64,000 bases of DNA from Zychaea mexicana (taxonomy: Eukaryota; Mucoromycota; Mucoromycetes; Mucorales; Lichtheimiaceae): assembly GCF_025766255.1 (NCBI RefSeq), contig NW_026516726.1, forward strand, positions 62,001 to 126,000. Direction: 5' to 3'. The position numbers and the translations under genes are program-made. Below, piece by piece: positions 6,278 through 33,808 of the stretch. Position 1 is the stretch's first letter. Every line of letters starts with the position of its first letter. The notes under the pieces are model-generated. The model was given only the letters and a program-made list of their open reading frames with translations. It ran no database searches and had not been told where the DNA came from.

Positions 6278-7805
6278 ATAGCGCTCAATCTGTCGGCTTG
6301 ATATTGGTTAGTACTTACTAGTCTTTATATTGATCATAGTACAGTATATGCTTTTGTAGTTGCGAAGTTAATTTTCTCTTCTTTTTCTAAGGTATCCAAT
6401 CCACATGCATGGGAAAAAATAGAGAACAAACTCGCAATCACTTCGACTGATGGAATGAAAATGGACGATGAAGCCAACTCTTTCGACCATATCATCTCAC
6501 TTGCTACCACCACTACTGCTACAACAACAGCATGGAAGGTCAAGATCACGGACCAAGACAAGGAGGCACTGAGTGTGAGTTTCGAAAAGCTAGACAGTAG
6601 CACGTTTTGGATACTGGAGGCAACTAAAATGGAGGCAGAATGCGAAGGCAGCAGGGCTGAATCAGTCGAGGAGAAGGTGATGAGCTTCGCCTTATCATGC
6701 AACTTTTACCAGTAAGGATCAAAATCAGGAACAAAAAGCACCCGCTATGCATAAAATATATGCTAACCTGCTGGCTAAATACTTTAGTTCGTCGATGTCA
6801 TTGATTCTAGACATCACTGATGATAATTGGCTGAGCGTATTCAGCGAAGATGAGTTGGAAGATGTGCCTTTGAAGGGTGGACTTTTGGAAGAGAGTGAAG
6901 TGAAAGAAATGGTAAGCTTGTTACCTCCGTAATAACAATAGAAAACAGAATCCGATATATACTTATCAACAATATTTTGTAGAAGTCATCGTCAGAAGTG
7001 TTCGTGTATGCTCGCCGAATGCCATTGAATCCATGCGATGATTCACTCAAAGTTTGGCTATCAACAGAGCTACAAAAGGTTTCACGGCCGTTTTTTTAAA
7101 AAAAAAGAATACACTCGATATCACAAGCTTTCCAGTCCTCTTGATTCTTTTATCCAGACGAAGCGTGCCCGTGTATTCACACCTGAACAATTCCTGAAGG
7201 CCTTCGTCAGGTTTATCGTGAAAAGCAAACTGCCAATTTACCTTGGCCGAGAACGACGATTTGCAGGAACTTTTGGAGATTACACAATCTGCATCTGCCA
7301 TGGAAACGGTACAGCTTCAGAAGAAGATCAGCTTTATAAGTTCCTTGGCTTTTTCGCCGCCATCTTTGAGGATACGCTGATCACCGCCGAAGGGTAGAGT
7401 AACCAGATGATTAAGGAGGAAGTGAAAGGCGCAAGAAACAATGCTCTGATCTCTCAAAATGTTATGTATAGCTCCGAAAAGTCAAGCGAAAGTGGTGGAA
7501 ATGGCAAAATGCTTTCAGCCATCGATCCGATTGAAAGGCACAAGATGGGACGCCGCGTCGATACTGTTTTTGCTTCTGGACCTATCGAGCTTGGCTGCAC
7601 CGAAATTGGAGCAAAAAATGACCAAACAAAAACATTAACGGATAGATCCCTCAAAATGCCACTTATACTACGGGATATGTTGCTTGATGTTACGTATGCT
7701 CCGGCATTACTCAAGCGTTCCCATGTGGTCGCGTATTGTATAGGATTTTTCCAAATTATTTGCAGCTTTGCGCCCGATGAAAGCGAAAGTTTGCGTGCCA
7801 TTTGA
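6278..7805 (+). pseudogene. Truncated copy of PD-(D/E)XK-like gene family 1
   Basis: This stretch is homologous to the two separated gene pieces inside the giant palindrome (20980-21516 and 16796-17580), but here the pieces are joined in the natural order. Readable exons: about 6391-6711 (NPHAWEKIENKLAITST ... KVKITDQDKEAL), about 6777-6911 (ITDDNWLSVFSEDELEDVPL), 6983-7396 with a segment absent from the palindrome copy (FTPEQFLKAFVRFIVKSKLP), and 7400-7735 (MGRRVDTVFASGPIELGCTEIG). Asp in GRRVD and Glu in CTEIG resemble the core of PD-(D/E)XK nuclease folds; this is inference. The copy lacks exons 1-2 and the last exon: homology begins abruptly near 6278 and stops near 7735. Frame breaks within it make it a pseudogene. 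Confidence 0.6.
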
Positions 7806-13494: not shown

Positions 13495-13829
13495 CTCATA
13501 TACGAGCATTTATGCTTTTCTCTATCCATTACTATTGATATACTGTCCCTCTTTCCGTTGCTTCATATAGTTCTCTTTTCCATTTTTCCATTGACTTCAC
13601 TCTACTCTACTTTATTTTTTCAATCCCATTTCAATACTTAGATTTCTCTTCTTTTATACTCATACCGAACATATATTATGTACTTATACTTACAATTGAT
13701 AACACATAACACATTAGAGTAATGTAGGGTTTCGGGTGCTTTAGCAGTTAGGGTTTAGTAATATGCAAAGCGAAGTTGTTTAGGCTTGAATACTTCAAGA
13801 TCACTGATTCAGCCATGAATAAGCAACGA

Positions 13830-13964
13830 GAGGGGGGTTTGGGGGGCTTGCCCCCCAACCTGGGGGTCAAGGGGGGAACCCCCTTGCGACGCGTTCCCGT
13901 TGAATGACACGGAGCGAAGCGGAGGGGCTCATTCAGCCGAGCGAAGCGAGGCAGGGACCGCTAG
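13830..13964 (+). repeat. Helitron 3' terminal GC-rich hairpin region
   Basis: G- and C-run inverted sequences (GGGGGGCTTGCCCCCC; AAGGGGGGAACCCCCTT) and the repeated GAGCGAAGCG words lead to the CTAG end. They stand out sharply in base composition from the AT-rich flank. Structure like this is expected at the Helitron terminator end. Confidence 0.6.
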
Positions 13965-14287
13965 TTTTTGATTAAAATTGTAAGAGCCCATTTGTTCATC
14001 AGACTTGATAACTGTTGACTTGTCACCATACATCATGGCAATTCGCCTTGAACTTTTTTTTGTTTAAAAAAGAGAGGAAAGGGATGAATGAGAAGACGAC
14101 AAGCAATTAAACTACAATTATATAAAAACACAGTAATCATTTACTAGCGTTCAAATATGTCGCGTATTGTGTCGATGTTTTAAATTTTTTGCATGAATAT
14201 AAAATTACCTTGCAGAAACAAAGAACGACAACTACTGCGCATACCTATTCTTCTGATTTTTCCCGTTGTCTACCAACAACAATCACT
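13965..14287. other. Gap between the Helitron and the next fragment
   Basis: 323 bp of AT-rich DNA with no coding signal. It should be the pre-insertion flank of the Helitron. Confidence 0.5.
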
Positions 14288-14525
14288 ATGGAAACAAAAT
14301 TCACTGGTAAATTACAGTAAGACATAGACGTGTTGCTTAGTGATACTAATACCTATCAATTCGACTATCACTCTTTTAGCTGAGTTGAAGGCGTATTTTC
14401 ATTCTTGCAAAAAAACGCATCGCTGCGCAAATTTTTCAAATTTCGTCACACGCCATGAGCAAGTGATCATTGACCTTCAACTGAAAATACTTGATCCAGA
14501 GGCTATTACAGTGGACCCCCTTTAA
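14288..14525 (+). pseudogene. Two-exon gene fragment cut by a MITE
   Basis: ATG 14288 opens a 19-bp first exon (METKFT). A 72-bp GT...AG intron (14307-14378) then leads to ELKAYFHSCKKTHRCANFSN, HEQVIIDLQLKILDPEAI. The frame reads straight into the MITE terminal repeat at 14509 and stops at 14523-14525. No family is recognised. The intact codon pattern up to the MITE suggests the gene was interrupted by it. What follows the MITE is unrelated AT-rich repeat, so the rest is gone. Confidence 0.4.
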
Positions 14526-14873
14526 TGTCAACCCCTTTAATGTCAACCCCTGATATGGTCAACCTTTTAACTAAGAACCTCATATTTTTGCAGAGATAAA
14601 TTTCAGCTTCTACATATGGTCAATGTCAACACCTTGGCCAGGGTTGACTTCTTATTAAGGTCAAACATATCTAATCAAAAGAGATTATTTCGTTGTTGGT
14701 TGAAAATATATTGTTAGGAACAACTCTGTTGCATACATACACTGTATCAGGGTGCGCTGGTTTAATATTTTTATTATACAGTTAAACTTTGTGCCACCCC
14801 CTTTAACATCAACCCCCGTTAGCATCAATACTTTCAGCTATACTTGAGAGCTGACATTAAACGGGGTCCACTG
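14509..14873. mobile_element. 365-bp pogo/Tigger-type MITE
   Basis: Starts CAGTGGACCCCCTTTAATGTC and ends ...GACATTAAACGGGGTCCACTG: near-perfect terminal inverted repeats of about 20 bp. It is flanked by TA on both sides (14507-14508 and 14874-14875), the target duplication of Tc1/mariner-pogo elements. The AATGTCAACCCC word occurs twice in the left end. No transposase is encoded, so it is a non-autonomous derivative. Confidence 0.85.
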
Positions 14874-14875
14874 TA

Positions 14876-15731
14876 TTTTATGGATTTGTTTTATTATAAA
14901 GAAAACTTATACAAATAGCAATACCACTAGTGAAAGAATATAGTTACAGATACACAGCAGGTACCAATTAAGCCCAATAGAACATTTAGGTCTGCACAAA
15001 ACATAATTCTAGTATCAAAACAATAAAGCCATCAGCAGGTCAAGCTACTACTAATGTACTCTATCCTATAATCAAATATCTTAATCAAAAAGTAAGACTA
15101 TTATATTTTTACCAGATCTCATTAGGAATCATAAATTGACTAATATTGATTCTAGGGCAACAGTCCACAGTATTCCTTTCCTTCACTTCTGATGCCACCA
15201 TCAATGGTTTTCATAAAGATCTAAATATTCTCTTGTATATATTTCTAAGATAAACTCAATAACTTTAAAGAAGGTTATTTACAGTATGTATCTTTTTTGG
15301 AGAGAAGGATAAGTTATATAATTTAATATCTGACAATCAATACTTCAGGTATATTGAATCCAGATATTTATAAGATTATAAAGATAAAAAACAGATTAAA
15401 AGGTTCTTTTTAAGTGAAATAAAATTATTAATTATGAAAATATAAATGTATATATCAATAATAGAATAAATAGAATGTAAAGAATTAACATTTTCTATCT
15501 ATAACTTATATAAAAATTGATTTAAACATATTAAATGGCTGAAATTAATTTCTATATTTAATATATCTACTGATGCTAGTATTTGAATTATTACTAATGA
15601 TATATGATATTTTTAAGATAAAAGTGACTTAATGAAAAAATTAAAAACTAAAAAATATTGTCCATTATCTTTTTTATATAGATTTTAAGAGAATATAATC
15701 AAAATCATAAAACTTATAAATATTAGACTGG
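14876..15731 (+). repeat. Outer left arm of the giant palindrome (diverged)
   Basis: About 856 bp, inverted and homologous to 32953-33808 with frequent substitutions and small indels, unlike the near-identical inner arms. Homology starts exactly at the TA next to the MITE. Very AT-rich. It contains, on the minus strand, a PBS-like word (TGGTGGCATCAGAAG). Confidence 0.75.
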
Positions 15732-16795
15732 AGAAGATTTCGAAAACATTTATAGCATTACTTTTTATTTTATAATCAAATTTTTAATCTTTTTTTTAAA
15801 TGTTAAATTAATATATTTGATTAAAAAAAAGATTAATTTTGTATTTTATTGATAAATAATTTTTTTTTCAAAAAAAGGAGAGATATCTCCATTTCTATAT
15901 ATAGTATGCAATCTTTCCTCCAGATCAATCCTTTTTCTTATATTAATACATATTTGTGAATCTTAACTACTTATTTTTATATAATAGTGTTGCTGCTTCC
16001 AGTATCATTAATACTTTAACTAATGTCAGCTAGGGAAATGATCATTGCTGACTATGTTGGTAAAGCACTATTCAATATAATGGAAAGGTTGTGTATTAAG
16101 AAGAAGGATATATATATGATAAGAATGTTGGGGACGAATTACTAGGAGGAACAATCAATAGTAAATATATACTAATAAATATATATTTAAAACTTCTCTA
16201 ATAATAATTTTAAAGATATCATTTAGAAATTAATACCTTGAATAAGATTACATTTCTCTGTTAAATAATCTATTGAAAGTTCTTTTTCATTAAATGTAGA
16301 TAAAGATATCTATAAATTATCGTGATCATTATATCCTTTCCATTTTACATAAAATTGATATTCTTTATGTTCAATTGTATGTTTTATTACTGTATCTTCT
16401 CTATTTCATATATATATTATCATCTTTGTTTATATCTCTTATTTAATTTATATCAATAACTTTATTTTTATTCTTATTATGTTTTCGTTTTATTGTTCTA
16501 CCTTTTAATTATAAAAAATCATCATTATAGATATACTATATGTATCTTCTTTACGAAATTACATTATCTTTATTATTAATTATTATATCACTGAGCAATA
16601 ATAGGAATTATAAAGATATTGAATTAACTTTAGAAAGTAGATATAATTAGAGTAAAATTTTTAAACTTTAATATTTATTAATTTTTTGTATTTAACTTTA
16701 ATTTTGTAATTAAGGGGAGTTTAACATTAACTATTAATTTAAGCATAAGTAATAAATCTACCAAAATTAATAAATTAAAAATATAATAGAAAAGA
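14876..16795 (-). mobile_element. AT-rich Ty3/gypsy chromovirus relic, left copy
   Basis: Strongly AT-rich sequence ending abruptly at 16795, where pseudogene sequence resumes. On the minus strand around 16261-16413 a chromodomain can be read (YEIE, then EYQFYVKWKGYNDHDN, a TAG where Trp is expected, STFNEKELSIDYL). This is the mirror of 31838-31990. Chromodomains of this type end the integrases of chromoviruses. The rest of pol is not readable. Confidence 0.5.
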
Positions 16796-17987
16796 TAATT
16801 TTAGACATCACTGATGACAATTGGCAAAGTGTATTTAGCAAAGATGAGTTGGAAGAAGTGTCCTTGAAGGGTAGACCTTTGGAAGAGTGTAAGATGCCAG
16901 AGGAGTTAGCGTCGACATTCAATGAAAGAAATGGTAAGCTTGTTGCCTCCATATCAACAAGAGAAAACAGAATCGCATACATACCATCAATATTTTGTAG
17001 AAGTCACCGTTAGAAGTATTTATGTATGCTTGCAGAATGCCATTAAATCTATGTGATGATTCACTCAAGGTTTGGCTGTCAACAGAGCTGCAAAACGTAT
17101 CAAGGCCGTTTCTCAAAAAAAAAGACACTCGACATCACTAGCATTCCAGAAGCAGATCAGCTCTACAAGTTTCTTGGCTTTTTTACCACCATCTTTGAGG
17201 ATACGCTGATTACTGCTAAAGGGTAGAGTAACCAGATGATCAAGGAGGATGTGAAGACGCAAGAAACAATGTACTGATCTCTCTATTTACTATGTATAGC
17301 TCCGAAAAGTCAAGCGAAAGCAGTGGAAATGGCAAAAATGCAAAGTGAAAGCTATCAGCTATCGATCCAATTGAAAGGCGTAAGATGGGACGAGGTGTCG
17401 ACACTGTCTTTGCTTCTGGACCAATCGAGTTTAGCTGCACTGAAATTGGATCAAAAAACGACCAAACAAAAACATTAACAGATGGATCCCTCAAAATGCC
17501 ACTTGTACTCCAGGATATGTTGCTTGATGTCACTTATGCTCTGTCACTACTCCACCGTTCCCATGTCGTCAGGTACTCTATGAATGGTAAGTCTAAATCA
17601 GGTTTTTAAACAAGGGCTGGTGGTTAGGCTCCATTATCTTTTTTTTGGCATCAAACAGGTGGCAAGGTCTCGTTGGTCGATGCAGACATCCCGGAAGGTT
17701 TGGTTACAAGAATAAGACGCTTTCGCCCGATTGAACACCCAAGCAACGAGCAAAATTTCATAACAAGAGTAATTCCTCTGCTAAAAATCGCACTCACCAG
17801 GAAAAATATCATGGAGCAAATGCTGGCTGCCGTCAAAAGCACACCCCATCCTACCACTACCTCCTTCAAAAGACACTGGTGTCTTCCACCAAATTACGAG
17901 TCTCCACCCACTTCACATTCAACAAAAGCATCTTCTCTATCGTCACCAAAACTCTCATCAGCAAACAAGCGTCAGCGCCTGACCTGA
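16796..17987 (+). pseudogene. PD-(D/E)XK-like gene family 1, 3' half (left arm)
   Basis: Begins in mid-gene at the edge of the AT-rich element (ITDDNWQSVFSKDELEEVSL). It continues through an exon with a frame break near 17130, then MGRGVDTVFASGPIEFSCTEIG, and after a 72-bp intron (17587-17658) the last exon: VSLVDADIPEGLVTRIRR ... PLLKIALTRKNIMEQM, ending TGA 17985-17987. The copy at 6278 lacks this last exon but has a segment (7140-7320) that is missing here. The 5' half of the gene lies downstream, at 20700-21516. D and E of the GRxVD...E core fit a PD-(D/E)XK-like fold (inference). Confidence 0.6.
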
Positions 17988-20699
17988 TCGAATATTGTCA
18001 TTATCATCAATTTCCTTGTTTTCCATCATTTTCTTCACTTTCTTACATTACGAACTTTATTCTATATCGTGTTTTACATATGTCATTTAAGAAAAACCTG
18101 CATCACCTACCAACACCTACACTCAAATTATACCTATCATAAGAGATGCTACATGATCATTCATCTATACTCTTCGCTGTATGTTGTTGGTATCGTCCCT
18201 TTTCTGATCAATTTCTCTTACAAATTCGATGCATAAAAATAGGAGGATTCAACGAACCACTCCTCGGCTTCCATCAAGGTAATGCTACTGCATAATGTCT
18301 ATTTATCTCTAGCTGAGAGCAAACAGATATACTACATTATAGGCTATATTACTCCATCTCATTCTTATTGAGCTTTCCTATTGAACAGTGCTGCTCTTCA
18401 ATTATAGTGGCTTTTGCTCCTTGCTTTCTTTATCCGCACAGAGTTTCAATCCATAACAATTAATTTAGCAATAAATTGCTAATTAATTTTATTTATGTCT
18501 TTCACTGTCAAGCTAGCCTTTGTCCAAGTATTCCTTGGCTAGAGAAGGGACTTACTCACTACTATTGCACTACTACAAGGTTTGAATTAAACATTAAAGG
18601 ATATTACATTTTAAACAGTTTAAAAAGGTTTATACAAAACCTAAACCTTTAAAGAATTAAAAAAAAAGTTAAAAAAAATCTTAAACATTTAAAAAAATTA
18701 TAATCTAATTTTTAATTTTTTTATATATATCTTTAAACAATGATTTACCTTTAATCTATAAAACCTTTTAAGGATTAACTCCCGCAGCATTTTGCCATAG
18801 TTCTGTTTTCTTCGTAGACCCTTTTTATGTATAGAAGCATCAGCAATGGTACGATTTCTTCTGGTATCAGAAGGCCTTTGTCAGTTCCGTCCTCACAAGG
18901 AAGCCCAAATCTGGGATACCACTATTTTATCATGATGCATCAGAGTACTTTGCCAGTAACGTCCTCGCTTGCTGTTTGCTCATGATAGACTACTGTGCAT
19001 CAGTGGGGAGGGCCTTGTCAGTTCCGTCCTCACAAGATAACCTGAATCACTGTTGCTCGGAGTACCGTTTCTCTGTCTCTCTCTTCCTCTCTTTTTTCTT
19101 TATCTATTTCGACACCTTCAATTGTGTGAACAGCATCATCAAATGCCCTTAATTAACTTGACTGCTTCCAGCTAAGTAATATATTGAGCTATCGTACTAA
19201 TAAAGACGCTTCATTATATTTTTTTCTGTCAGGCTGGACCTTATTCGTATTGAGAATGCTCTAGGATATTGTCCTCAAGGTATGTTATTTATCACAGACA
19301 GAAATGGATTCTTTAATTAGTTGTCTAGTCACATATAGTACTCATTTTTTAAACTCTAAACATCCTCATCATCGTCAGTAGGATCGTGCTTGTCCTTTCT
19401 GAATCCACGTAGTCTGGGGTTAGATAATCAAGAACAACAAGGAGCAGAGGAACGAGCAGGAATAGCAGTGCTATGCGCGATGCCACAACAGCACCTAATA
19501 CTCCGCACCCATCATTATCCATGATCAAACATAAACCCGTTACCAGCGAACATGTTGACAGCAAGAGAAGGGAGGAGAGAAGTAGTGGATCTGGAGCTTC
19601 AAGGCGCTTTGTAGTTGCTTCCATATATTGTTTTGCAGTGTTATACTATTTTTCGTCTCATCTATTTTTTTCATTTCTCTCTCTCTCTTTCACATATGTA
19701 ATTTTTTGATTTGATGTGTAATTTATGATAGCATGAAACAGTCTATATCCTCTACTTATCACACTCTGTACGCATGTACATGTGCAGTATCAACCGTTTT
19801 GTAATAATATAGCAACAATACAAGCAAATCAATCTTTTTATTTCTCTTTGTTTAATTCTGGAAGCACAAGTTAAACATACACTACATCGTGACCAATCGA
19901 GATATAGCTTCTAAATATGATGAATATTACATACCCAAGGCGGTCGTCGTCTTTATATGCTAATAAATGCATATCATTTTTCTTTGCATCAATACGTCAT
20001 CCGCCAAAGCTTTCGTTCATATGATAAGGGTTGGAAGCGTTCTATCATGTTATTCGAGCAGTACGGCTCGTGTGGTCACTAGGTCTTCCTCATGATGACT
20101 TATCTTGTTGTCATAGTGAGGGCGGAATGTTCGTATGTCGGCGACAGCAAGTGGGTCAAGCATTAGCGTATGTAATCTAGCCATGTCCGGCTTGTCAGTG
20201 CAAGTGTGTTAGAAAAGACTACTTAAATGTGTTGCAACAAAGCTTTAAGCTGCATAACTGTAAGATGCCTATAGTAACAACAGGTTCGCAACGTGAAACG
20301 CTCTTAGATTGCATATAGCTCAAAAGAAAGTGACATGTCTTATTATGTATCGTAAATGAGTCTTTGCCTGATTAATCAACCCCACACTTTTCTTTCTATC
20401 TTTGTACACACTCTAGCATAAACACTCTTCTACTAAGCTTTATACGCAGCACTCTACCGTGAGTAACAAAGAAGGATAGACCCTGTCTGTCGAAAGGACA
20501 ATTGCCAGTTGTCAAACATGAAACTGCCACGATCTGGACCAAGAGATTCGCGGCAAACGCAAAGCCAGAAACTCAGCCCTGTTGTGAGTGGAGAAGAACA
20601 ATCACTGTCTTGATGATTCAAAAAGCCCCACATGGTTCGGCGCTCGCGTTCCGCAGCACTTTGATTTTCTCTCTTGTAACCACATTCACTTTAGTTGCC
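17988..20699. other. Linker between permuted gene halves (left arm)
   Basis: 2.7 kb with no recognisable gene. A 19-bp word, TCAGTTCCGTCCTCACAAG, occurs at 18881-18899 and 19018-19036. An A/T run of AAACCTTTAAA-type words spans 18600-18780. A 78-codon frame at 19473-19709 is S/R-rich at first and hydrophobic at its end; I cannot support it as a gene. Confidence 0.45.
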
Positions 20700-21516
20700 A
20701 TGTCAACAAAAGCTGAACTCGTTACTTCAATCGACGAAGGTAGCTACTACTACTGCTATCAGTATAAATGTTTCAGTAAATAAGCTTGCACTAGTATAAG
20801 TACAACAAATAACTGATGTCTCTGGTGATAGTATTCAAGCCTTTGTCGCAGTCAGACAGCAACACCACTGTCACCCTTCAAACGGTCTTGGACCGTCTTG
20901 ATAGCGTGATTGTCAACTCCAAGGACAGAAATACTTCATTCTGAGACTTCAAAAGCACTTGGATGAAAAGTTTGACAAATAGCGCTCAATCTACCAGCTT
21001 AATACTAGTTAGTACTTACTATTCTTTATATTGATCATAGTATTTGCTTTTTGTAGTAGCGAAGCTAATTTTTTCTTCTTTTTTCAAGGTATCTGATCCA
21101 CATGCATGGGAAACATTAGAGAGAAAACTTGCAATCACTTCGACTGGTGGCTTAGAATTTAACGGTGAAGCCGACTCTTTCGACACTAATACCTCACCAA
21201 CTACTACCACTACCACTACCTCTACAACAACAGTATTGAAGGTCAAGATCACGGACCAAGACAAGGAGGCGCTGCATGCGAGCTTTGAGAAGTTAGATAG
21301 TAGCAAGTTTTGGATGCTGCAGGCGACAAAAATGGAGGCAGAGCGCCAAGGCAGCAGGGCTGAATCAGTCAAGGAGAAGGCGATGAGCTTCACCTTGTTA
21401 TACAACTACTATGTACCAGTAAGGATCAAAAATCAGGAACATAAATACCCACTATGCATAAACTATATGCTAACTTGCCTGCTAAATTTTTTAGTCCATC
21501 AATGTCTTTAAAATTA
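20700..21516 (+). pseudogene. PD-(D/E)XK-like gene family 1, 5' half (left arm)
   Basis: ATG 20700 starts exon 1 (20700-20739, MSTKAELVTSIDE). Exon 2 starts at 20832 (FKPLSQSDSNTTVTLQTVLD). A one-base loss near 20928 shifts the frame; the other frame continues as KYFILRLQKHLDEKFDK. Exon 3 follows at about 21090-21418 (SDPHAWETLERKLAITST ... LKVKITDQDKEAL). Homology to the joined copy ends at about 21512, exactly at the point where the 3' half begins at 16796. The AT-rich element follows directly. A frameshift and the break make it non-functional. Confidence 0.6.
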
Positions 21517-22569
21517 ATATTTTTTTTATTTTTGAAACAATTAACAATATTTTTTAAAGAAATTTTAATCTATACATTATTTAGGTTTCATATAAATGTG
21601 TTTAAACTATATGTTTAAACATATTATATCTGGGGCCAGCGGACCGGTAGGGAGCATATCCCTCCTTACATGAGGAGCTTGCAACGATATGTACTCATCA
21701 ATGAAATTTAAAGCATGGAGGGTGTTATGAAAAACAAATAAAATAGTAGTTTACCACATAATTTATTATTATTAATTAATGCCTAAGGAAGAATTAATAA
21801 TTTAAGATAATTGTGTATATATATTAAACTTCAAATGTATAATATTATGATAAAGTTTCGAATTTTCTGCAATGCTATAATTAAAATTATGTTTGTCATC
21901 AGATCCGATAATTTTTTTTCTTTCAAAAAATTAAATAAAAAAAGCACGTTGTAAATCCTTGTAATCAACTTACAACATTAGAAATAAGAATATAGGACTA
22001 ATTGAAAATATTATGATAATAAAAGCACGTTGTAAGTCCTTCTAATCAACTTACAACATTAGAAATAAGAATAGGGGACTAATCAGAAATATTATGATAC
22101 TTTATAAAAAATTTTATTATCTCGATTTCTTAAAATTGAACTGATTATCAACTTTCTAATGTTAAGACTGGGGTCTGATAAAAAAATCGAAGATTTCTTT
22201 GAAGAGGGTCTTGACTCTTCTCATTTATGAGAAATCCTTAGATTGATAGTAATCAATCAATAGACTTACATAATCTTGATGATGATAAGTCCCCATAATA
22301 AAAGATTATATTGATAATTTATAGTTTAAATTTAGTTATATTAATAATACTAATATATGATACTTAACGTTTCTCACTATTTATATCTATAACCATAATT
22401 TTTTTTATATCAGTTTTATTTTATTTATTTTTTTCATTTGCTCTATTTGATTTATATATACAATGTCTACTAATTTATGTTCACTAAGGAATTCAAAATT
22501 ATTACTTTCCCATAATTTATGATGAGATTGCAGATTAATATTCTCAATAATAACATCTAACCTTTTTAG
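21517..22569. other. AT-rich stretch, left arm, no gene
   Basis: Over 75 % A+T apart from a GC-rich island at 21630-21690. It contains a two-copy 81-bp tandem repeat (from 21941 and from 22022). Probably the other end of the AT-rich element that splits the pseudogene. Confidence 0.45.
21941..22102 (+). repeat. Two-copy 81-bp tandem repeat with hairpin
   Basis: AAAGCACGTTGTAA starts copies at 21941 and 22022. Each copy contains GTTGTAAGT...ACTTACAAC, an inverted pair that could form a stem of about 9 bp. The mirror copy lies at 26149-26310. Confidence 0.7.
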
Positions 22570-23350
22570 AGGTGAAACGGTTTCAGCAGCAACAAAATCA
22601 GAAATAGATGAAGCACAGATAAACGTTGCCAGCTTTGGCCGACGAATTGATATGCTGGTCATTACTCATACTATAGGAGAAGAAAAAGTCGTGGAGCTAG
22701 CTGCGATTGAACATAAGAAGTATGGCAAGAAAGCAGAAGTGATGTTGGAACAACAAAACAAGAACATCTTGACAAACTCGTGTATACTTACACAATTATA
22801 AAAAACGATTCAAAGTCGACACTAAACCAGACAGCATTACAAACCCACTTGTAATGGATATATCAGGTACATTTGACTAAAAGACGTATCTACTGAGTAA
22901 TAATGAACGTTCTATTATGTATGCTAATAAAGGTGTTCAATATATTTCCATGCATGCTAGGACGTAATGCGTATATTCACCAAGTATACACGTACGAAGA
23001 TGTACTTGTAGCTGCAAAGGCATCAAGGAAATACATCCAATTACCGACAACGTTATGTGAACTGGAAGGTTTTATCAAGCATGGAAACATGTTTACATTA
23101 GTGAATTATTGTGTGAGTAGAAATACAGTGTCTTATCCATGCTATGTGAAACTTAAAGAGTGTATTACAATACTGAATTATTTTTAGTATTTATTATTAG
23201 AATCATTTGGTTAAAGCTGCTCAAGCAATTTTACCATATTATGACAGAGCGAATAAGAGAATCGTTGAACAAAGTTTCAATAGTGATGGCTCTATCTCTA
23301 ACAATCAGGCATCTTCCATTTATTTTTCCAAAAACAAGAAAGCCAAGTAA
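22570..23350 (+). pseudogene. PD-(D/E)XK-like gene family 2 (left arm)
   Basis: Three readable exons: 22570-22866 (GETVSAATKSEIDEAQ, SFGRRIDMLVITHTIG, ELAAIEHKK), 22961-23112 (YIHQVYTYEDVLVAAKASRK ... LVNYC) and 23201-23350 (NHLVKAAQAILPYYDRANKR ... ending KKAK, TAA). Introns of 94 and 88 bp fit GT...AG. Exon 1 needs a one-base shift near 22787 to join CIL with HNYKKRFKVDTKPDSITN, and no start exon is found. GRRID and the downstream E-H-K-K match the D...E-x-K layout of PD-(D/E)XK nucleases. I recognise the family as a common lineage-specific one in Mucoromycota from memory; its role is unknown to me. Confidence 0.6.
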
Positions 23351-23747
23351 TTAGTTTTATGTATTCTTCTTAAACTCCATATCTCAACCCTTTTCATGAA
23401 TCCTTATATCCATCAAATTTACATTATTTTACAAACAGTAAAAACTTACCACTGGGGAATATGTTTTAGTAATCAGAAGCAGTATGAAATAGCAACGTAT
23501 GCTACACTCGCTCATTACTGTAACTTTTGTATGGTGGTTTTTAGATCTATTGAGTGGTATATTTTATTCGTAAGAATACAAAAGGAAATAAATACCTTGC
23601 AGCCATTTCAAAAATATCTACTTAGACCACAGCTTTTTGTATATGATAAATGAAAACAGAAAAAATAGATATTATCATGTTAACATACATTAACTTCGAT
23701 TACTTGTTGCTGCCTAAACAAACAAGTTGCTGGACTTATGCCTTCCT
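23351..23747. other. Inner end of the left arm, no gene
   Basis: About 400 bp of AT-rich DNA up to the spacer. An 85-codon frame (23396-23653) is present in both arms but shows no domain. Confidence 0.4.
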
Positions 23748-24503
23748 TTTTGCATGCCTAGAGGACTAGTATCCTCTGGTTCTCCGTAAGTATGGATGGG
23801 ATAAAGAATAATAAATGTTTATTGTTATAGTTATAGAAGAAGGATAAGAAAGTGGATGGGATAAAATAATGGATGTGCTATCATTGTATATACTTAATGA
23901 AAATAAAAAATAAAGGTAATATGGCGGTTTTGTAAGAAGGAAAAGATCAGATAGGATGATAAGAAGTGATGATTAATTGACTATCGAGGTTGCGTTGCAG
24001 AGCGTCCTATGATTGTGCTGTTGCATAAGATCTTGTGCAGGAGGAGCAATTGTCTGACCTGTTGGGCATATTGTTGAGCCTCTTGTTGTGTTATAGTTCA
24101 GAGCTGCGTTGTTGCTGTTCTGGTAGGTAGCAAAGAAGTTCCCCTCGTACAAAATCATACCTTCTCTTTATTTTGCTCAGCCACATTACTAGAATATCAT
24201 GACCAATTCCCGATGAACCATTTTATAACCCTGTAATCATCAAGCAACGTTGGCATTCTATTTAGAGAACTGGAACATATTTAAAGTCTGACAACCATCA
24301 TTTTTTTAGCCATCCTACAAAACTGAATATTTCTTGTATGCACTATATCGATATACCCAGCCCACTAAACGATAGACTCATCCATCTCCTACAAAAAAAA
24401 ACATTATCCATCCCACTATCTATATCTTTTTAATCCACTGATCCGACTTGGCGTCATATTATAATATCTGAGGGGAAAAACCTTCAGCGCCATCGTCATG
24501 GCT
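23748..24503. other. Unique spacer at the palindrome centre
   Basis: 756 bp not repeated elsewhere in the window; the symmetry point is 24125.5. It is mixed in composition, with a Gln-rich reading on the minus strand (TQQEAQQYAQQVRQLLLL, about 24028-24100) but no complete ORF. The word GGATGGGATAAA occurs twice near 23795 and 23853, and its complement TTATCCATCCCA near 24405, so the spacer has its own weak inverted ends. Confidence 0.7.
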
Positions 24504-24900
24504 AGGAAGGCATACGTCCAGCAACTTGTTTGTTTAGGCAGCAACAAGTAATCGAAGTTAATGTATGTTAACATGATAATATCTATTTTTTCTGTTTTCA
24601 TTTATCATATACAAAAAGCTGTGGTCTAAGTAGATATTTTTGAAATGGCTGCAAGGTATTTATTTCCTTTTGTATTCTTACGAATAAAATATACCACTCA
24701 ATAGATCTAAAAACCACCATACAAAAGTTACAGTAATGAGCGAGTGTAGCATACGTTGCTATTTCATACTGCTTCTGATTACTAAAACATATTCCCCAGT
24801 GGTAAGTTTTTACTGTTTGTAAAATAATGTAAATTTGATGGATATAAGGATTCATGAAAAGGGTTGAGATATGGAGTTTAAGAAGAATACATAAAACTAA

Positions 24901-25681
24901 TTACTTGGCTTTCTTGTTTTTGGAAAAATAAATGGAAGATGCCTGATTGTTAGAGATAGAGCCATCACTATTGAAACTTTGTTCAACGATTCTCTTATTC
25001 GCTCTGTCATAATATGGTAAAATTGCTTGAGCAGCTTTAACCAAATGATTCTAATAATAAATACTAAAAATAATTCAGTATTGTAATACACTCTTTAAGT
25101 TTCACATAGCATGGATAAGACACTGTATTTCTACTCACACAATAATTCACTAATGTAAACATGTTTCCATGCTTGATAAAACCTTCCAGTTCACATAACG
25201 TTGTCGGTAATTGGATGTATTTCCTTGATGCCTTTGCAGCTACAAGTACATCTTCGTACGTGTATACTTGGTGAATATACGCATTACGTCCTAGCATGCA
25301 TGGAAATATATTGAACACCTTTATTAGCATACATAATAGAACGTTCATTATTACTCAGTAGATACGTCTTTTAGTCAAATGTACCTGATATATCCATTAC
25401 AAGTGGGTTTGTAATGCTGTCTGGTTTAGTGTCGACTTTGAATCGTTTTTTATAATTGTGTAAGTATACACGAGTTTGTCAAGATGTTCTTGTTTTGTTG
25501 TTCCAACATCACTTCTGCTTTCTTGCCATACTTCTTATGTTCAATCGCAGCTAGCTCCACGACTTTTTCTTCTCCTATAGTATGAGTAATGACCAGCATA
25601 TCAATTCGTCGGCCAAAGCTGGCAACGTTTATCTGTGCTTCATCTATTTCTGATTTTGTTGCTGCTGAAACCGTTTCACCT
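24901..25681 (-). pseudogene. PD-(D/E)XK-like gene family 2 (right arm)
   Basis: Mirror of 22570-23350 with the same three readable exons and the same frame break in the first exon. I see no coding difference between the two arms here. Confidence 0.6.
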
Positions 25682-26734
25682 CTAAAAAGGTTAGATGTTA
25701 TTATTGAGAATATTAATCTGCAATCTCATCATAAATTATGGGAAAGTAATAATTTTGAATTCCTTAGTGAACATAAATTAGTAGACATTGTATATATAAA
25801 TCAAATAGAGCAAATGAAAAAAATAAATAAAATAAAACTGATATAAAAAAAATTATGGTTATAGATATAAATAGTGAGAAACGTTAAGTATCATATATTA
25901 GTATTATTAATATAACTAAATTTAAACTATAAATTATCAATATAATCTTTTATTATGGGGACTTATCATCATCAAGATTATGTAAGTCTATTGATTGATT
26001 ACTATCAATCTAAGGATTTCTCATAAATGAGAAGAGTCAAGACCCTCTTCAAAGAAATCTTCGATTTTTTTATCAGACCCCAGTCTTAACATTAGAAAGT
26101 TGATAATCAGTTCAATTTTAAGAAATCGAGATAATAAAATTTTTTATAAAGTATCATAATATTTCTGATTAGTCCCCTATTCTTATTTCTAATGTTGTAA
26201 GTTGATTAGAAGGACTTACAACGTGCTTTTATTATCATAATATTTTCAATTAGTCCTATATTCTTATTTCTAATGTTGTAAGTTGATTACAAGGATTTAC
26301 AACGTGCTTTTTTTATTTAATTTTTTGAAAGAAAAAAAATTATCGGATCTGATGACAAACATAATTTTAATTATAGCATTGCAGAAAATTCGAAACTTTA
26401 TCATAATATTATACATTTGAAGTTTAATATATATACACAATTATCTTAAATTATTAATTCTTCCTTAGGCATTAATTAATAATAATAAATTATGTGGTAA
26501 ACTACTATTTTATTTGTTTTTCATAACACCCTCCATGCTTTAAATTTCATTGATGAGTACATATCGTTGCAAGCTCCTCATGTAAGGAGGGATATGCTCC
26601 CTACCGGTCCGCTGGCCCCAGATATAATATGTTTAAACATATAGTTTAAACACATTTATATGAAACCTAAATAATGTATAGATTAAAATTTCTTTAAAAA
26701 ATATTGTTAATTGTTTCAAAAATAAAAAAAATAT
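25682..26734. other. AT-rich stretch, right arm, no gene
   Basis: Mirror of 21517-22569, including the 81-bp tandem repeat (26149-26310) and the GC-rich island near 26560-26620. Confidence 0.45.
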
Positions 26735-27551
26735 TAATTTTAAAGACATTGATGGACTAAAAAATTTAGCAGGCAAGTTAGCATATAGTTTATGCATAGT
26801 GGGTATTTATGTTCCTGATTTTTGATCCTTACTGGTACATAGTAGTTGTATAACAAGGTGAAGCTCATCGCCTTCTCCTTGACTGATTCAGCCCTGCTGC
26901 CTTGGCGCTCTGCCTCCATTTTTGTCGCCTGCAGCATCCAAAACTTGCTACTATCTAACTTCTCAAAGCTCGCATGCAGCGCCTCCTTGTCTTGGTCCGT
27001 GATCTTGACCTTCAATACTGTTGTTGTAGAGGTAGTGGTAGTGGTAGTAGTTGGTGAGGTATTAGTGTCGAAAGAGTCGGCTTCACCGTCAAATTCTAAG
27101 CCACCAGTCGAAGTGATTGCAAGTTTTCTCTCTAATGTTTCCCATGCATGTGGATCAGATACCTTGAAAAAAGAAGAAAAAATTAGCTTCGCTACTACAA
27201 AAAGCAAATACTATGATCAATATAAAGAATAGTAAGTACTAACTAGTATTAAGCTGGTAGATTGAGCGCTATTTGTCAAACTTTTCATCCAAGTGCTTTT
27301 GAAGTCTCAGAATGAAGTATTTCTGTCCTTGGAGTTGACAATCACGCTATCAAGACGGTCCAAGACCGTTTGAAGGGTGACAGTGGTGTTGCTGTCTGAC
27401 TGCGACAAAGGCTTGAATACTATCACCAGAGACATCGGTTATTTGTTGTACTTATACTAGTGCAAGCTTATTTACTGAAACATTTATACTGATAGCAGTA
27501 GTAGTAGCTACCTTCGTCGATTGAAGTAACGAGTTCAGCTTTTGTTGACAT
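26735..27551 (-). pseudogene. PD-(D/E)XK-like gene family 1, 5' half (right arm)
   Basis: Mirror of 20700-21516 with the same exon-2 frameshift. One coding difference is visible: Asp replaces Asn in the LEF-x-GEADSF stretch of exon 3. The shared frameshift shows that the inactivation predates the last copying between arms. Confidence 0.6.
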
Positions 27552-30263
27552 GGCAACTAAAGTGAATGTGGTTACAAGAGAGAAAATCAAAGTGCTGCGG
27601 AACGCAAGCGCCGAACCATGTGGGGCTTTTTGAATCATCAAGACAGTGATTGTTCTTCTCCACTCACAACAGGGCTGAGTTTCTGGCTTTGCGTTTGCCG
27701 CGAATCTCTTGATCCAGATCGTGGCAGTTTCATGTTTGACAACTGGCAATTGTCCTTTCGACAGACAGGGTCTATCCTTCTTTGTTACTCACGGTAGAGT
27801 GCTGCGTATAAAGCTTAGTAGAAGAGTGTTTATGCTAGAGTGTGTACAAAGATAGAAAGAAAAGTGTGGGGTTGATTAATCAGGCAAAGACTCATTTACG
27901 ATACATAATAAGACATGTCACTTTCTTTTGAGCTATATGCAATCTAAGAGCGTTTCACGTTGCGAACCTGTTGTTACTATAGGCATCTTACAGTTATGCA
28001 GCTTAAAGCTTTGTTGCAACACATTTAAGTAGTCTTTTCTAACACACTTGCACTGACAAGCCGGACATGGCTAGATTACATACGCTAATGCTTGACCCAC
28101 TTGCTGTCGCCGACATACGAACATTCCGCCCTCACTATGACAACAAGATAAGTCATCATGAGGAAGACCTAGTGACCACACGAGCCGTACTGCTCGAATA
28201 ACATGATAGAACGCTTCCAACCCTTATCATATGAACGAAAGCTTTGGCGGATGACGTATTGATGCAAAGAAAAATGATATGCATTTATTAGCATATAAAG
28301 ACGACGACCGCCTTGGGTATGTAATATTCATCATATTTAGAAGCTATATCTCGATTGGTCACGATGTAGTGTATGTTTAACTTGTGCTTCCAGAATTAAA
28401 CAAAGAGAAATAAAAAGATTGATTTGCTTGTATTGTTGCTATATTATTACAAAACGGTTGATACTGCACATGTACATGCGTACAGAGTGTGATAAGTAGA
28501 GGATATAGACTGTTTCATGCTATCATAAATTACACATCAAATCAAAAAATTACATATGTGAAAGAGAGAGAGAGAAATGAAAAAAATAGATGAGACGAAA
28601 AATAGTATAACACTGCAAAACAATATATGGAAGCAACTACAAAGCGCCTTGAAGCTCCAGATCCACTACTTCTCTCCTCCCTTCTCTTGCTGTCAACATG
28701 TTCGCTGGTAACGGGTTTATGTTTGATCATGGATAATGATGGGTGCGGAGTATTAGGTGCTGTTGTGGCATCGCGCATAGCACTGCTATTCCTGCTCGTT
28801 CCTCTGCTCCTTGTTGTTCTTGATTATCTAACCCCAGACTACGTGGATTCAGAAAGGACAAGCACGATCCTACTGACGATGATGAGGATGTTTAGAGTTT
28901 AAAAAATGAGTACTATATGTGACTAGACAACTAATTAAAGAATCCATTTCTGTCTGTGATAAATAACATACCTTGAGGACAATATCCTAGAGCATTCTCA
29001 ATACGAATAAGGTCCAGCCTGACAGAAAAAAATATAATGAAGCGTCTTTATTAGTACGATAGCTCAATATATTACTTAGCTGGAAGCAGTCAAGTTAATT
29101 AAGGGCATTTGATGATGCTGTTCACACAATTGAAGGTGTCGAAATAGATAAAGAAAAAAGAGAGGAAGAGAGAGACAGAGAAACGGTACTCCGAGCAACA
29201 GTGATTCAGGTTATCTTGTGAGGACGGAACTGACAAGGCCCTCCCCACTGATGCACAGTAGTCTATCATGAGCAAACAGCAAGCGAGGACGTTACTGGCA
29301 AAGTACTCTGATGCATCATGATAAAATAGTGGTATCCCAGATTTGGGCTTCCTTGTGAGGACGGAACTGACAAAGGCCTTCTGATACCAGAAGAAATCGT
29401 ACCATTGCTGATGCTTCTATACATAAAAAGGGTCTACGAAGAAAACAGAACTATGGCAAAATGCTGCGGGAGTTAATCCTTAAAAGGTTTTATAGATTAA
29501 AGGTAAATCATTGTTTAAAGATATATATAAAAAAATTAAAAATTAGATTATAATTTTTTTAAATGTTTAAGATTTTTTTTAACTTTTTTTTTAATTCTTT
29601 AAAGGTTTAGGTTTTGTATAAACCTTTTTAAACTGTTTAAAATGTAATATCCTTTAATGTTTAATTCAAACCTTGTAGTAGTGCAATAGTAGTGAGTAAG
29701 TCCCTTCTCTAGCCAAGGAATACTTGGACAAAGGCTAGCTTGACAGTGAAAGACATAACTAAAATTAATTAGCAATTTATTGCTAAATTAATTGTTATGG
29801 ATTGAAACTCTGTGCGGATAAAGAAAGCAAGGAGCAAAAGCCACTATAATTGAAGAGCAGCACTGTTCAATAGGAAAGCTTAATAAGAATGAGATGGAGT
29901 AATATAGCCTATAATGTAGTATATCTGTTTGCTCTCAGCTAGAGATAAATAGACATTATGCAGTAGCATTACCTTGATGGAAGCCGAGGAGTGGTTCGTT
30001 GAATCCTCCTATTTTTATGCATCGAATTTGTAAGAGAAATTGATCAGAAAAGGGACGATACCAACAACATACAGCGAAGAGTATAGATGAATGATCATGT
30101 AGCATCTCTTATGATAGGTATAATTTGAGTGTAGGTGTTGGTAGGTGATGCAGGTTTTTCTTAAATGACATATGTAAAACACGATATAGAATAAAGTTCG
30201 TAATGTAAGAAAGTGAAGAAAATGATGGAAAACAAGGAAATTGATGATAATGACAATATTCGA
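27552..30263. other. Linker between permuted gene halves (right arm)
   Basis: Mirror of 17988-20699, including the two 19-bp repeats (29215-29233 and 29352-29370 on the opposite strand). No gene is supported. Confidence 0.45.
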
Positions 30264-31455
30264 TCAGGTCAGGCGCTGACGCTTGTTTGCTGATGAGAGT
30301 TTTGGTGACGATAGAGAAGATGCTTTTGTTGAATGTGAAGTGGGTAGAGACTCGTAATTTGGTAGAAGACACCAGTGTCTTTTGAAGGAGGTAGTGGTAG
30401 GATGGGGTGTGCTTTTGACGGCAGCCAGCATTTGCTCCATGATATTTTTCCTGGTAAGTGCGATTTTTAGCAGAGGAATTACTCTTGTTATGAAATTTTG
30501 CTCGTTGCTTGGGTGTTCAATCGGGCGAAAGCGTCTTATTCTTGTAACCAAACCTTCCGGGATGTCTGCATCGACCAACGAGACCTTGCCACCTGTTTGA
30601 TGCCAAAAAAAAGATAATGGAGCCTAACCACCAGCCCTTGTTTAAAAACCTGATTTAGACTTACCATTCATAGAGTACCTGACGACATGGGAACGGTGGA
30701 GTAGTGACAGAGCATAAGTGACATCAAGCAACATATCCTGGAGTACAAGTGGCATTTTGAGGGATCCATCTGTTAATGTTTTTGTTTGGTCGTTTTTTGA
30801 TCCAATTTCAGTGCAGCTAAACTCGATTGGTCCAGAAGCAAAGACAGTGTCGACACCTCATCCCATCTTACGCCTTTCAATTGGATCGATAGCTGATAGC
30901 TTTCACTTTGCATTTTTGCCATTTCCACTGCTTTCGCTTGACTTTTCGGAGCTATACATAGTAAATAGAGAGATCAGTACATTGTTTCTTGCGTCTTCAC
31001 ATCCTCCTTGATCATCTGGTTACTCTACCCTTTAGCAGTAATCAGCGTATCCTCAAAGATGGTGGTAAAAAAGCCAAGAAACTTGTAGAGCTGATCTGCT
31101 TCTGGAATGCTAGTGATGTCGAGTGTCTTTTTTTTTGAGAAACGGCCTTGATACGTTTTGCAGCTCTGTTGACAGCCAAACCTTGAGTGAATCATCACAT
31201 AGATTTAATGGCATTCTGCAAGCATACATAAATACTTCTAACGGTGACTTCTACAAAATATTGATGGTATGTATGCGATTCTGTTTTCTCTTGTTGATAT
31301 GGAGGCAACAAGCTTACCATTTCTTTCATTGAATGTCGACGCTAACTCCTCTGGCATCTTACACTCTTCCAAAGGTCTACCCTTCAAGGACACTTCTTCC
31401 AACTCATCTTTGCTAAATACACTTTGCCAATTGTCATCAGTGATGTCTAAAATTA
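30264..31455 (-). pseudogene. PD-(D/E)XK-like gene family 1, 3' half (right arm)
   Basis: Mirror of 16796-17987. Differences from the left arm include His for Arg just after the translated core region on the opposite strand and two Leu-for-Pro changes in the last exon (WCLLPNYESLP versus WCLPPNYESPP). Confidence 0.6.
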
Positions 31456-32519
31456 TCTTTTCTATTATATTTTTAATTTATTAATTTTGGTAGATTTATT
31501 ACTTATGCTTAAATTAATAGTTAATGTTAAACTCCCCTTAATTACAAAATTAAAGTTAAATACAAAAAATTAATAAATATTAAAGTTTAAAAATTTTACT
31601 CTAATTATATCTACTTTCTAAAGTTAATTCAATATCTTTATAATTCCTATTATTGCTCAGTGATATAATAATTAATAATAAAGATAATGTAATTTCGTAA
31701 AGAAGATACATATAGTATATCTATAATGATGATTTTTTATAATTAAAAGGTAGAACAATAAAACGAAAACATAATAAGAATAAAAATAAAGTTATTGATA
31801 TAAATTAAATAAGAGATATAAACAAAGATGATAATATATATATGAAATAGAGAAGATACAGTAATAAAACATACAATTGAACATAAAGAATATCAATTTT
31901 ATGTAAAATGGAAAGGATATAATGATCACGATAATTTATAGATATCTTTATCTACATTTAATGAAAAAGAACTTTCAATAGATTATTTAACAGAGAAATG
32001 TAATCTTATTCAAGGTATTAATTTCTAAATGATATCTTTAAAATTATTATTAGAGAAGTTTTAAATATATATTTATTAGTATATATTTACTATTGATTGT
32101 TCCTCCTAGTAATTCGTCCCCAACATTCTTATCATATATATATCCTTCTTCTTAATACACAACCTTTCCATTATATTGAATAGTGCTTTACCAACATAGT
32201 CAGCAATGATCATTTCCCTAGCTGACATTAGTTAAAGTATTAATGATACTGGAAGCAGCAACACTATTATATAAAAATAAGTAGTTAAGATTCACAAATA
32301 TGTATTAATATAAGAAAAAGGATTGATCTGGAGGAAAGATTGCATACTATATATAGAAATGGAGATATCTCTCCTTTTTTTGAAAAAAAAATTATTTATC
32401 AATAAAATACAAAATTAATCTTTTTTTTAATCAAATATATTAATTTAACATTTAAAAAAAAAGATTAAAAATTTGATTATAAAATAAAAAGTAATGCTAT
32501 AAATGTTTTTGAAATCTTC

Positions 32520-32952
32520 TTGTGGTAAACTAAGATCCGGTACAGACAGATGTCTTGATAGAAGGTTTCTCTTTACCACACTGGGATCTAATAAGGGACA
32601 CGGTTGCGCATATGCACCTAGCTGGATCGAAATGTGGATCCTTCATATAACTCAGTAAAGAAACCAAGTATGAAACAACCATTCAAGAACACATCTCAAA
32701 CCATCATAAAAGTTTTTTATTCGTTCTTACAGCAAAGCACCAGTAAGGTCCTTGCTGACAAAGAAGTTGATAAGCTTTCCACCTTTAGATCTGTTTCTCC
32801 GTTAAGACTGAGTTCTCTAATAATGTTTGAAAGTTAGATATAAAAGAAGATAGTTTCTATAGCTGATATTGCACTTTATTCAATCTTTTTGAATATAATC
32901 CATTCTCAAACGACTTATTTGTCTTTGTTTATTTCGATTTACCATACTTCTC
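32520..32952. other. 433-bp segment present only in the right arm
   Basis: It sits exactly where the near-identical inner arm ends and the diverged outer arm begins. It is less AT-rich than its surroundings. It opens with TGTGGTAAA and repeats it inverted as TTTACCACA at 32573-32581, a potential 9-bp stem with a 40-nt loop. A 67-codon frame (32634-32837) is unconvincing. No target duplication was found. Confidence 0.65.
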
Positions 32953-33808
32953 TAGTATCTAATATTTATAACTTTATGATTTTGATTATAATCTCTAAAA
33001 ATCCATATAAAAAAGATAATGGACAATATTTTTTAGTTCTTAATTTTTTCATTAAGTCACTTTTATCTTAAAAATATCATATATTATTAGTAATAATTCA
33101 AATATTAGCATCAGTAAATATATTAAATATAGAAATTAATTTCAGACATTTAATATGTTTAAATCAATTTTTATATAAGTTATAGATACAAAATATTAAT
33201 TTTTACATTCTATTTATTCTATTATTGATATATACATTTATATTTTCATAATTAATAATTTTATTTCCCTTAAAAAGAACCTTTTGATCTGTTTTTTATC
33301 TTTATAATCTTATAAATATCTGTATCTAATATATCTGAAGTATCGATTGTCAGATATTAAATTATATAACTTATCCTTCTCTTTAAAAAAGATACATACT
33401 GTAAATATTCTTCTTTAAAGTTATTGAGTTTATCTTTAGAAATATATGTAAGAGAATATTTAGATCTTTATGAAAACCATTAATGGTGGCATCAGAAGTG
33501 AAGGAAAGGAACGCTGTGGACTGTTGCCCTAGAATCGATATTAGTCAATTTATAATTCCTAACGAGATCTGGTAAAATTAAATAGTCTTACTTTTTGATT
33601 AAGATATTTGATTATAGGATAGAGTACATTGGTAGTAGCTTGACCTGCTGATGGCTTTATTGTTTTGATATTAGAATTATGTTTTGTTCAGACCTAAATG
33701 ACTCTATTGGGTTGATTGTTACCTGCTGTGTATCTGTAACTATTCTTTCACCAGTAGTATTGCTATTTGCAAGATTTTTCTTTAGAATAAAACAAATCAA
33801 TAAAATAT
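32953..33808 (-). repeat. Outer right arm of the giant palindrome (diverged)
   Basis: Inverted partner of 14876-15731; matching coordinates sum to about 48684, which is 433 more than for the inner arms, accounting exactly for the insertion. Substitutions and 1-2 bp indels are frequent. Confidence 0.75.

What the first reader, a model, noticed from the sequence alone, without database searches (positions are those of the whole stretch)
15732..32519. Giant near-perfect palindrome: two 8,016-bp arms around a 756-bp spacer
Matching points on the two arms always sum to 48251, from 15732/32519 to 23747/24504, so the arms are collinear without net indels. About ten base differences were spotted by eye (about 99.9 % identity), while the pseudogenes inside are old and carry shared mutations. 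The arms are therefore much younger as a pair than their contents, or are kept alike by arm-to-arm gene conversion. Palindromes of this size are unusual in fungal chromosomes and should be prone to cruciform formation, breakage and amplification.
Basis: partly seen in the sequence, partly recalled or inferred. Interest (0 to 1): 0.88.

Follow-up and report, generated by a model that had tools for sequence, protein, structure and literature searches.

The report
Fungal palindrome homogenised by gene conversion
A mould chromosome carries a 19-kilobase mirror-image repeat whose inner arms are nearly identical although the repeat looks old, most likely because the two arms copy each other; inside it is a broken gene that seems to have arrived via a DNA circle, and similar mirror pairs of the same gene family occur elsewhere in that genome.

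Summary
The palindrome is real in the assembly: arms 15732-23747 and 24504-32520, 99.84 % identical (12 substitutions, one 1-bp indel), spacer 756 bp. It is longer than reported: beyond a 426-bp solo-LTR-like insert found only in the right arm, homology continues to 14874 and 33807 at 93.8 %. The identity step falls exactly at that insert and base composition does not explain it, so I favour an older palindrome whose inner 8 kb is homogenised by arm-to-arm conversion; a hairpin artefact is unlikely, but no reads were available. The host contig matches one of Zychaea mexicana (Mucorales) in length. A third copy of the arms' 4.7-kb core lies 32 kb away in circularly permuted order (ancestral A-B, arms B-A), the published signature of a circular intermediate. 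The core is a broken gene of a family with 129 exon matches in this genome. Four further loci, picked for equal-scoring opposite-strand copies, all gave inverted copies at 99-100 %, so this is one of several such pairs. Centromere and fold-back-transposon readings are poorly supported. Gene-converting palindromes and circle-borne duplications are known kinds; the gene-dead fungal arms and the conversion limit at an LTR make a clean new example.

The parts
14507..14875 (.). Short element with 24-bp inverted ends (TACAGTGGACCCC...), TA at both ends, abutting the left outer end of the palindrome
   Evidence: sequence; inverted ends 24 bp at 95.8 %. Class (Tc1/mariner-like MITE) recalled, not tested
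14874..15736 (+). Left outer arm, AT-rich (23 % GC), 93.8 % identical to 32947-33807
   Evidence: alignment; 53 of 858 differ
15732..23747 (+). Left inner arm, 99.84 % identical to the right inner arm
16142..16590 (-). C-terminal (chromodomain) part of a DDE_Tnp_4 + Chromo transposase gene, first part of a split fragment
   Evidence: 80 % to C261 and C68 copies, in which 16590 and 22374 are adjacent; Pfam on the intact C261 ORF
16796..18340 (+). Core part B: 3' half of a family gene, broken, plus 3' flank; TAA at its start
   Evidence: 95.9 % to C266:41834-43396; 46 of 1544 sites differ from the third copy in both arms
18326..21511 (+). Core part A: 5' flank and 5' half of the same gene, TAA at its end; in the third copy it is joined directly to the start of part B
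   Evidence: 98.6 % to C266:43394-46593; 25 of 3185 sites differ in both arms, none in the last 1125 bp
22374..22530 (-). Second part of the split transposase fragment
   Evidence: TCACT at 16588-16592 and 22374-22378 flanks the 5.8-kb insertion
22531..23747 (+). Inner arm segment with short ORFs, perhaps another gene fragment
   Evidence: ORFs; no Pfam match
23748..24503 (.). Spacer, 37 % GC, no second copy
   Evidence: only other match 75 % over 143 bp on C1 (both candidates scored)
24504..32520 (-). Right inner arm
32521..32946 (+). Solo-LTR-like insertion in the right arm only, CTTCT at 32516-32520 and 32947-32951
   Evidence: 36 matches in the genome (itself and some fragments included), most with common edges, two same-strand pairs 5.4 and 5.7 kb apart
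32947..33807 (-). Right outer arm
6278..7741 (+). Older relative (78-84 %) of the core in the ancestral A-B order

Best explanation
This is a genuine chromosomal palindrome of about 18.9 kb in a Mucorales fungus. An inverted duplication formed long enough ago for its outer 0.86 kb to diverge by 6 %. A solo LTR landed in the right arm. Inside that point the two 8-kb arms are kept nearly identical by arm-to-arm gene conversion, by many small events or a few very long ones; the heterology at the LTR limits the tracts. The 4.7-kb core is a family gene that most likely excised as a circle at short homologies, opened inside its own coding sequence at TAA, and integrated into an AT-rich, transposon-derived stretch. 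It is in both arms either because it arrived before the duplication or because conversion copied it across. Shown: geometry, identity step, permutation, third copy, other inverted pairs. Inferred: conversion, circle, order of events.
For: Identity steps from 99.86 % to 93.8 % exactly at the one-arm LTR insertion (Fisher 1.5e-43); the adjacent inner 1059 bp, of equally low GC, has 1 substitution and 1 gap against 53 of 858 outside (P 4e-18), so composition does not explain it. With the third copy as outgroup, 71 differences are shared by both arms and 10 are private to one arm. Permutation: the third and older copies carry A joined to B, and so do homologous proteins such as P0002-P0006; in the arms B precedes A, both ends carry TAA, and a short imperfect homology at the third copy's ends is fused. 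Third copy and arms have no shared differences over 1125 bp but 3 % in part B (0 of 20000 shuffles reach such a gap), pointing to ectopic exchange. Further inverted pairs: C241 (100 % over 1 kb; one fixed sum at three points over 5.1 kb), C90, C267, C250.
Against: No reads, second strain or related genome was available, so conversion and the circle are both inferred. The 11 inner differences are only weakly clustered: one of three statistics is significant (P 0.004-0.005), two are not (0.05-0.17). The outer 0.86-kb pair could be an older, separate inverted repeat. A tandem duplication with two coincident breakpoints would also give B-A order. The third copy as ancestor is assumed, and the ectopic exchange distorts dating by it.
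Confidence: 0.68

Rival explanations
1. A recent one-off inverted duplication of the inner 8 kb, for example by fold-back or break-induced replication anchored in an older 0.86-kb inverted pair, with no continuing conversion.
For: Only 12 substitutions in 8 kb; clustering of the differences is not significant by two of three statistics. Inverted duplication after breaks is known in yeast (PMC10622511, start of abstract in the listing).
Against: Needs a pre-existing inverted pair exactly abutting the new arms and ending at the LTR site. It also resembles one very long conversion tract, so the two differ mainly in repetition.
Confidence: 0.2
2. Assembly artefact: a hairpin chimeric read or a false inverted copy.
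For: A 16.8-kb inner palindrome is hard to span; no reads to check.
Against: Outer arms diverge by 6 % yet stay collinear, one arm has an extra LTR, both flanks are unrelated, and 9 of the 10 arm differences in the core are transitions, unlike random errors. Other inverted pairs occur on other contigs; being of the same assembly they would share any common fault.
Confidence: 0.06
3. A centromere of the inverted-repeat type (as in Candida tropicalis).
For: Gene-poor, AT-rich arms around a unique core; a core between inverted repeats that are homogenised is the C. tropicalis pattern (PMC4741521, passages).
Against: Spacer and outer arms gave no comparable second copy (2 of 2 candidates scored, 40 of 231 scored), whereas in C. 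tropicalis cores and repeats are shared between chromosomes; the Mucor circinelloides centromere is described as a ~1-kb core with a 41-bp motif in gene-free flanks with transposons (PMC9089191, passages), and that motif could not be searched; the recurrent unit here is a gene family.
Confidence: 0.04
4. A single fold-back or long-TIR transposon whose arms are its termini.
For: Transposase pieces lie in the arms; a related transposase piece lies near the axis of the C241 pair (50 % over 32 aa).
Against: No target duplication seen by eye at 14874/33807; no second locus matched the whole arm or the outer arm among the 40 of 231 candidates scored.
Confidence: 0.03

Closest known systems
Palindromes with arm-to-arm gene conversion (human Y, PMC6790999 passages; 11 palindromes in Folsomia candida and 17 in Adineta vaga as told in PMC5490193 passages; willow sex chromosome, PMC7023750 listing)
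   Same: Long, nearly identical inverted arms around a unique spacer; identity above that expected from age
   Different: Fungal; arms hold only gene and transposon remains; no sex chromosome known to be involved; the conversion boundary coincides with a solo LTR
Circular-DNA-mediated duplications (human cSDPs, PMC7450558 passages; Zygosaccharomyces bailii segment in wine yeast, PMC3053389 passages)
   Same: A-B to B-A order flip with only short homology at the joints
   Different: Small (4.7 kb), one gene, donor on the same contig, product in both arms of a palindrome
Candida tropicalis centromeres (PMC4741521 passages)
   Same: Core flanked by homogenised inverted repeats
   Different: No sharing of core or outer repeats with other contigs found; no kinetochore evidence

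Membership tests
Gene-converting palindrome | Long inverted arms at >99 % identity around a unique spacer | tested here: met
Gene-converting palindrome | Arms more alike than the age of the duplication allows | tested here: inconclusive
   outer 93.8 % against inner 99.86 % across the LTR supports it, but only if outer and inner arms are one duplication
Gene-converting palindrome | Concerted change between strains or species | not testable with these tools
   no second genome held
Gene-converting palindrome | Arms carry functional genes (common, not universal) | tested here: not met
   no complete ATG ORF >=120 aa listed in 13.5-37.4 kb; core gene split. Intron-rich small genes are not excluded
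Circular-DNA-mediated duplication | Order flip A-B to B-A between donor and derivative | tested here: met
Circular-DNA-mediated duplication | Only short homology at closing and opening joints | tested here: met
   TAA at the opening, about 9 bp imperfect at the closing, read by eye
Circular-DNA-mediated duplication | Circle observed | not testable with these tools
   needs eccDNA sequencing
Inverted-repeat centromere | Core or repeats recur on other chromosomes (C. tropicalis) | tested here: not met
   2 of 2 candidates scored; 40 of 231 scored
Inverted-repeat centromere | Kinetochore protein binding | not testable with these tools
   no ChIP data
Fold-back/long-TIR transposon | Target duplication at outer ends and several copies of the unit | tested here: not met
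   by eye; 40 of 231 candidates scored
Solo LTR (right-arm insert) | Common ends in many copies, paired same-strand copies, short target duplication | tested here: met
   36 matches including itself, pairs on C43 and C68, CTTCT repeat
Solo LTR (right-arm insert) | Pairs enclose retrotransposon genes | not tested
   interiors not fetched

The most novel reading that the evidence does not exclude
Zychaea mexicana amplifies a gene family, so far seen only in Mucorales, through a genome-wide set of large palindromes: copies leave as circles, reinsert in AT-rich transposon islands, become inverted pairs and are then held identical by arm-to-arm and third-copy conversion. This would be a palindrome-based gene-family recycling system in a fungus, and possibly a source of hairpin RNA for its RNAi machinery.
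Probability: 0.3. Interest if true: 0.72.

Novelty: new member of a known kind. Interest (0 to 1): 0.48.

Why it matters
Arm-to-arm conversion is mostly discussed as a device that protects genes on non-recombining chromosomes. Here near-identity extends over gene and transposon remains, which would argue that arms are homogenised mechanically, without selection on their content. The solo LTR gives a natural barrier with a sharp identity step, and the permuted third copy gives an outgroup, so tract limits, direction and bias become directly measurable in a fungus.

Tried and rejected
Rfam on the window: no family at gathering score. tRNA scan: none. Pfam on ten short arm ORFs: one sub-threshold bacterial match, dismissed. 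AlphaFold model of the family from 13 sequences: mean pLDDT 52.9, too poor to compare with solved folds, so no fold search was made. Overall strand test of the gene family: 26 of 66 neighbouring pairs within 30 kb are inverted and 40 direct, no excess of inversion (P 0.11); the inverted pairs sit mainly in the query's closest subfamily, a post-hoc remark. I first took the AT-rich element for a Ty3/Gypsy element because of its chromodomain; Pfam on the intact copy shows DDE_Tnp_4 plus Chromo. Transposase next to family genes: 7 of 129 within 1.5 kb of one of the 80 scored transposases against 0.96 expected if uniform, possibly mere co-clustering in transposon-rich DNA. A systematic palindrome survey of the genome could not be made for lack of letters. 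'Zychaea mexicana' as a phrase: 0 papers; 'Mucorales' with 'palindromes': 1 paper, on a mating locus, listing only; a five-term search for fungal arm conversion: 0 papers. Mating-locus papers in Cryptococcus with both 'palindrome' and 'gene conversion' were listed and not read. PMC6925572 on Mucor centromeres is not held, so its 41-bp motif was not searched. One script failed on a file name and was run again.

Full report
OBSERVATION. The window is G000:C266:62001-126000 of a 50.34-Mb assembly in 305 contigs. Mirror comparison confirms the finding: positions sum to 48251 from 15790 to 23747 with 11 substitutions, and beyond a 1-bp indel at 15789 to 48252, with one more substitution at 15742. 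Gapped identity is 99.84 % over 8017 columns. The spacer is 756 bp.

EXTENSION. The right arm carries a 426-bp insert (32521-32946) with CTTCT on both sides; the left arm has the undisturbed site. The insert has 36 matches in the genome, itself and some fragments included, most with common ends; two same-strand pairs lie 5.4 kb (C43) and 5.7 kb (C68) apart, so it is best read as a solo LTR. Beyond it the arms go on to 14874 and 33807, with 53 differences in 858 aligned bases. The left end abuts a small element with 24-bp inverted ends. No similarity continues outside, and I see no target duplication at the outer ends (by eye).

CONVERSION. The contrast between outer (53 of 858) and inner arm (11 of 7947) has Fisher P 1.5e-43. 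The immediately adjacent inner 1059 bp, equally AT-rich (19 % against 23 % GC), has 1 substitution and 1 gap (P 4e-18 on substitutions), so base composition is not the cause. If outer and inner arms are one duplication, the inner part has been rehomogenised, with the LTR heterology as the limit. Of three clustering statistics on the 11 inner differences one is significant (P 0.004-0.005) and two are not (0.05-0.17), so I cannot tell many short tracts from a few long ones.

THIRD COPY AND PERMUTATION. Searching the own genome with the left arm (40 of 231 candidates scored) returned a partial third copy at C266:41834-46593, about 32 kb left of the left arm's core. In it, arm segment 18326-21511 (A) is followed directly by 16796-18340 (B), joined through a shared TAA; in the arms B comes first and A last, and the ends of the third copy, which share an imperfect short homology, are fused. 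The older relative at 6278-7741 also has A-B order, and in homologous proteins such as P0002-P0006 from Rhizomucor, Apophysomyces, Circinella and Zychaea the A-B joint lies inside the coding sequence. So A-B is ancestral and the arms are derived. This is the A-B/C-D to B-A/D-C flip that PMC7450558 (passages) takes as the mark of a circular intermediate, and is like the permuted Z. bailii segments of wine yeast, where microhomology of 2-3 bases was noted for four of six insertions (PMC3053389, passages). A tandem duplication would need two breakpoints at the same TAA.

SURROUNDINGS OF THE CORE. The core lies inside a transposase remnant: 16142-16590 and 22374-22530 are adjacent in the copies at C261 and C68, where the ORF is open throughout (C261) or has one stop (C68) and matches DDE_Tnp_4 and Chromo (C261). 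TCACT stands at both ends of the 5.8-kb insertion. The transposase family is large: 827 first-look candidates, 80 scored.

DIVERGENCE FROM THE THIRD COPY. Both arms differ from it at 71 of 4729 sites (46 of 1544 in B, 25 of 3185 in A; two of these lie in the short end overlap), 45 of them G:C in the third copy and A:T in the arms by transition. Ten sites differ between the arms: seven look derived in the right arm (six C to T or G to A) and three in the left. The last 1125 bp of A have no shared difference, a gap that none of 20000 shuffles reached. This suggests exchange between third copy and arms as well. The third copy's state is assumed ancestral.

HOST AND FAMILY. The best protein match, a Zychaea mexicana record, lies on a contig of 277947 bases, the length of C266, and aligns best to the third copy. 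All 13 proteins found are from Zychaea, Rhizomucor, Apophysomyces and Circinella, which are Mucorales (recalled). No Pfam match in the pieces tested or precomputed for the 13; a structural model was too poor to use. The own genome holds 129 matches to one exon on 53 contigs (150 of 156 candidates scored).

NOT ALONE. I probed four further places, chosen after the fact because one search showed opposite-strand neighbours with equal scores. All four had inverted copies printed as 100 %: C241 (1000 bp, and a third copy at 99 %), C250 (five copies alternating in strand), C90 (and a third copy at 99 %) and C267 (and a third copy at 100 % as printed). Joined 100-base probes (40 of 314 candidates scored) show the C241 pair with one fixed sum at three points over 5.1 kb (99-100 %) and the C90 pair collinear within one base at two points over 3.2 kb. 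For the probe at C241:176801, near the axis, no mirror copy was reported, which suggests a central gap of 2 kb or more but is weak given the capped scoring; that probe encodes a piece related to the same transposase (50 % over 32 aa, E 8e-9). Against a general rule: over the whole family 40 of 66 close neighbours are direct and 26 inverted.

ALTERNATIVES. Artefact: unlikely for the reasons above but not excluded without reads. Centromere: the shape fits C. tropicalis (PMC4741521, passages), but spacer and outer arms were not found again and the described Mucor centromere is different (PMC9089191, passages). Fold-back transposon: no outer target duplication, no second copy found. A recent one-step duplication remains the main rival.

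KNOWN OR NEW. Palindromes kept alike by conversion are known from sex chromosomes (PMC6790999, passages) and from parthenogenetic animals (PMC5490193, passages). Among the titles and abstracts listed in my searches (each listed 15 papers or fewer, of up to 1,649 matching) I saw no report of such palindromes in Mucorales; Cryptococcus mating-locus papers were listed and not read. I file it as a new member of a known kind with unusually clean internal evidence.

Noticed in passing
window 8621-13966: Helitron with Helitron_like_N and PIF1 domains, split over several ORFs, between the older gene copy and the palindrome; its 3' end near 13966 is judged by eye.
   Followed up: partly
window 52013-56417; also C266:129769-134172 and C266:161861-165998: Another repeat of about 4.4 kb present three times on the part of this contig that was fetched, one copy inverted, 93-95 % identical.
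   Followed up: no
window 18441-18769: A repeat of about 330 bp inside the core with dozens of matches at 78-87 % across the genome, a number of them within 20 kb of coordinate 1 of their contigs (40 of 231 candidates scored).
   Followed up: no
C287, C299, C262, C90:452815-456437, C14 (probe from C241:173801): A minisatellite-like sequence of about 66-bp period occurs as inverted pairs about 3.5 kb apart on several contigs, like subterminal repeats of another transposon.
   Followed up: no
C250:237-297 kb: Eleven family copies strictly alternating in strand, part of them with a 6.5-kb period, apparently an array of small palindromes.
   Followed up: partly
genome G000: Family genes lie within 1.5 kb of a scored DDE_Tnp_4/Chromo transposase in 7 of 129 cases, 5 of these divergent.
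   Followed up: partly
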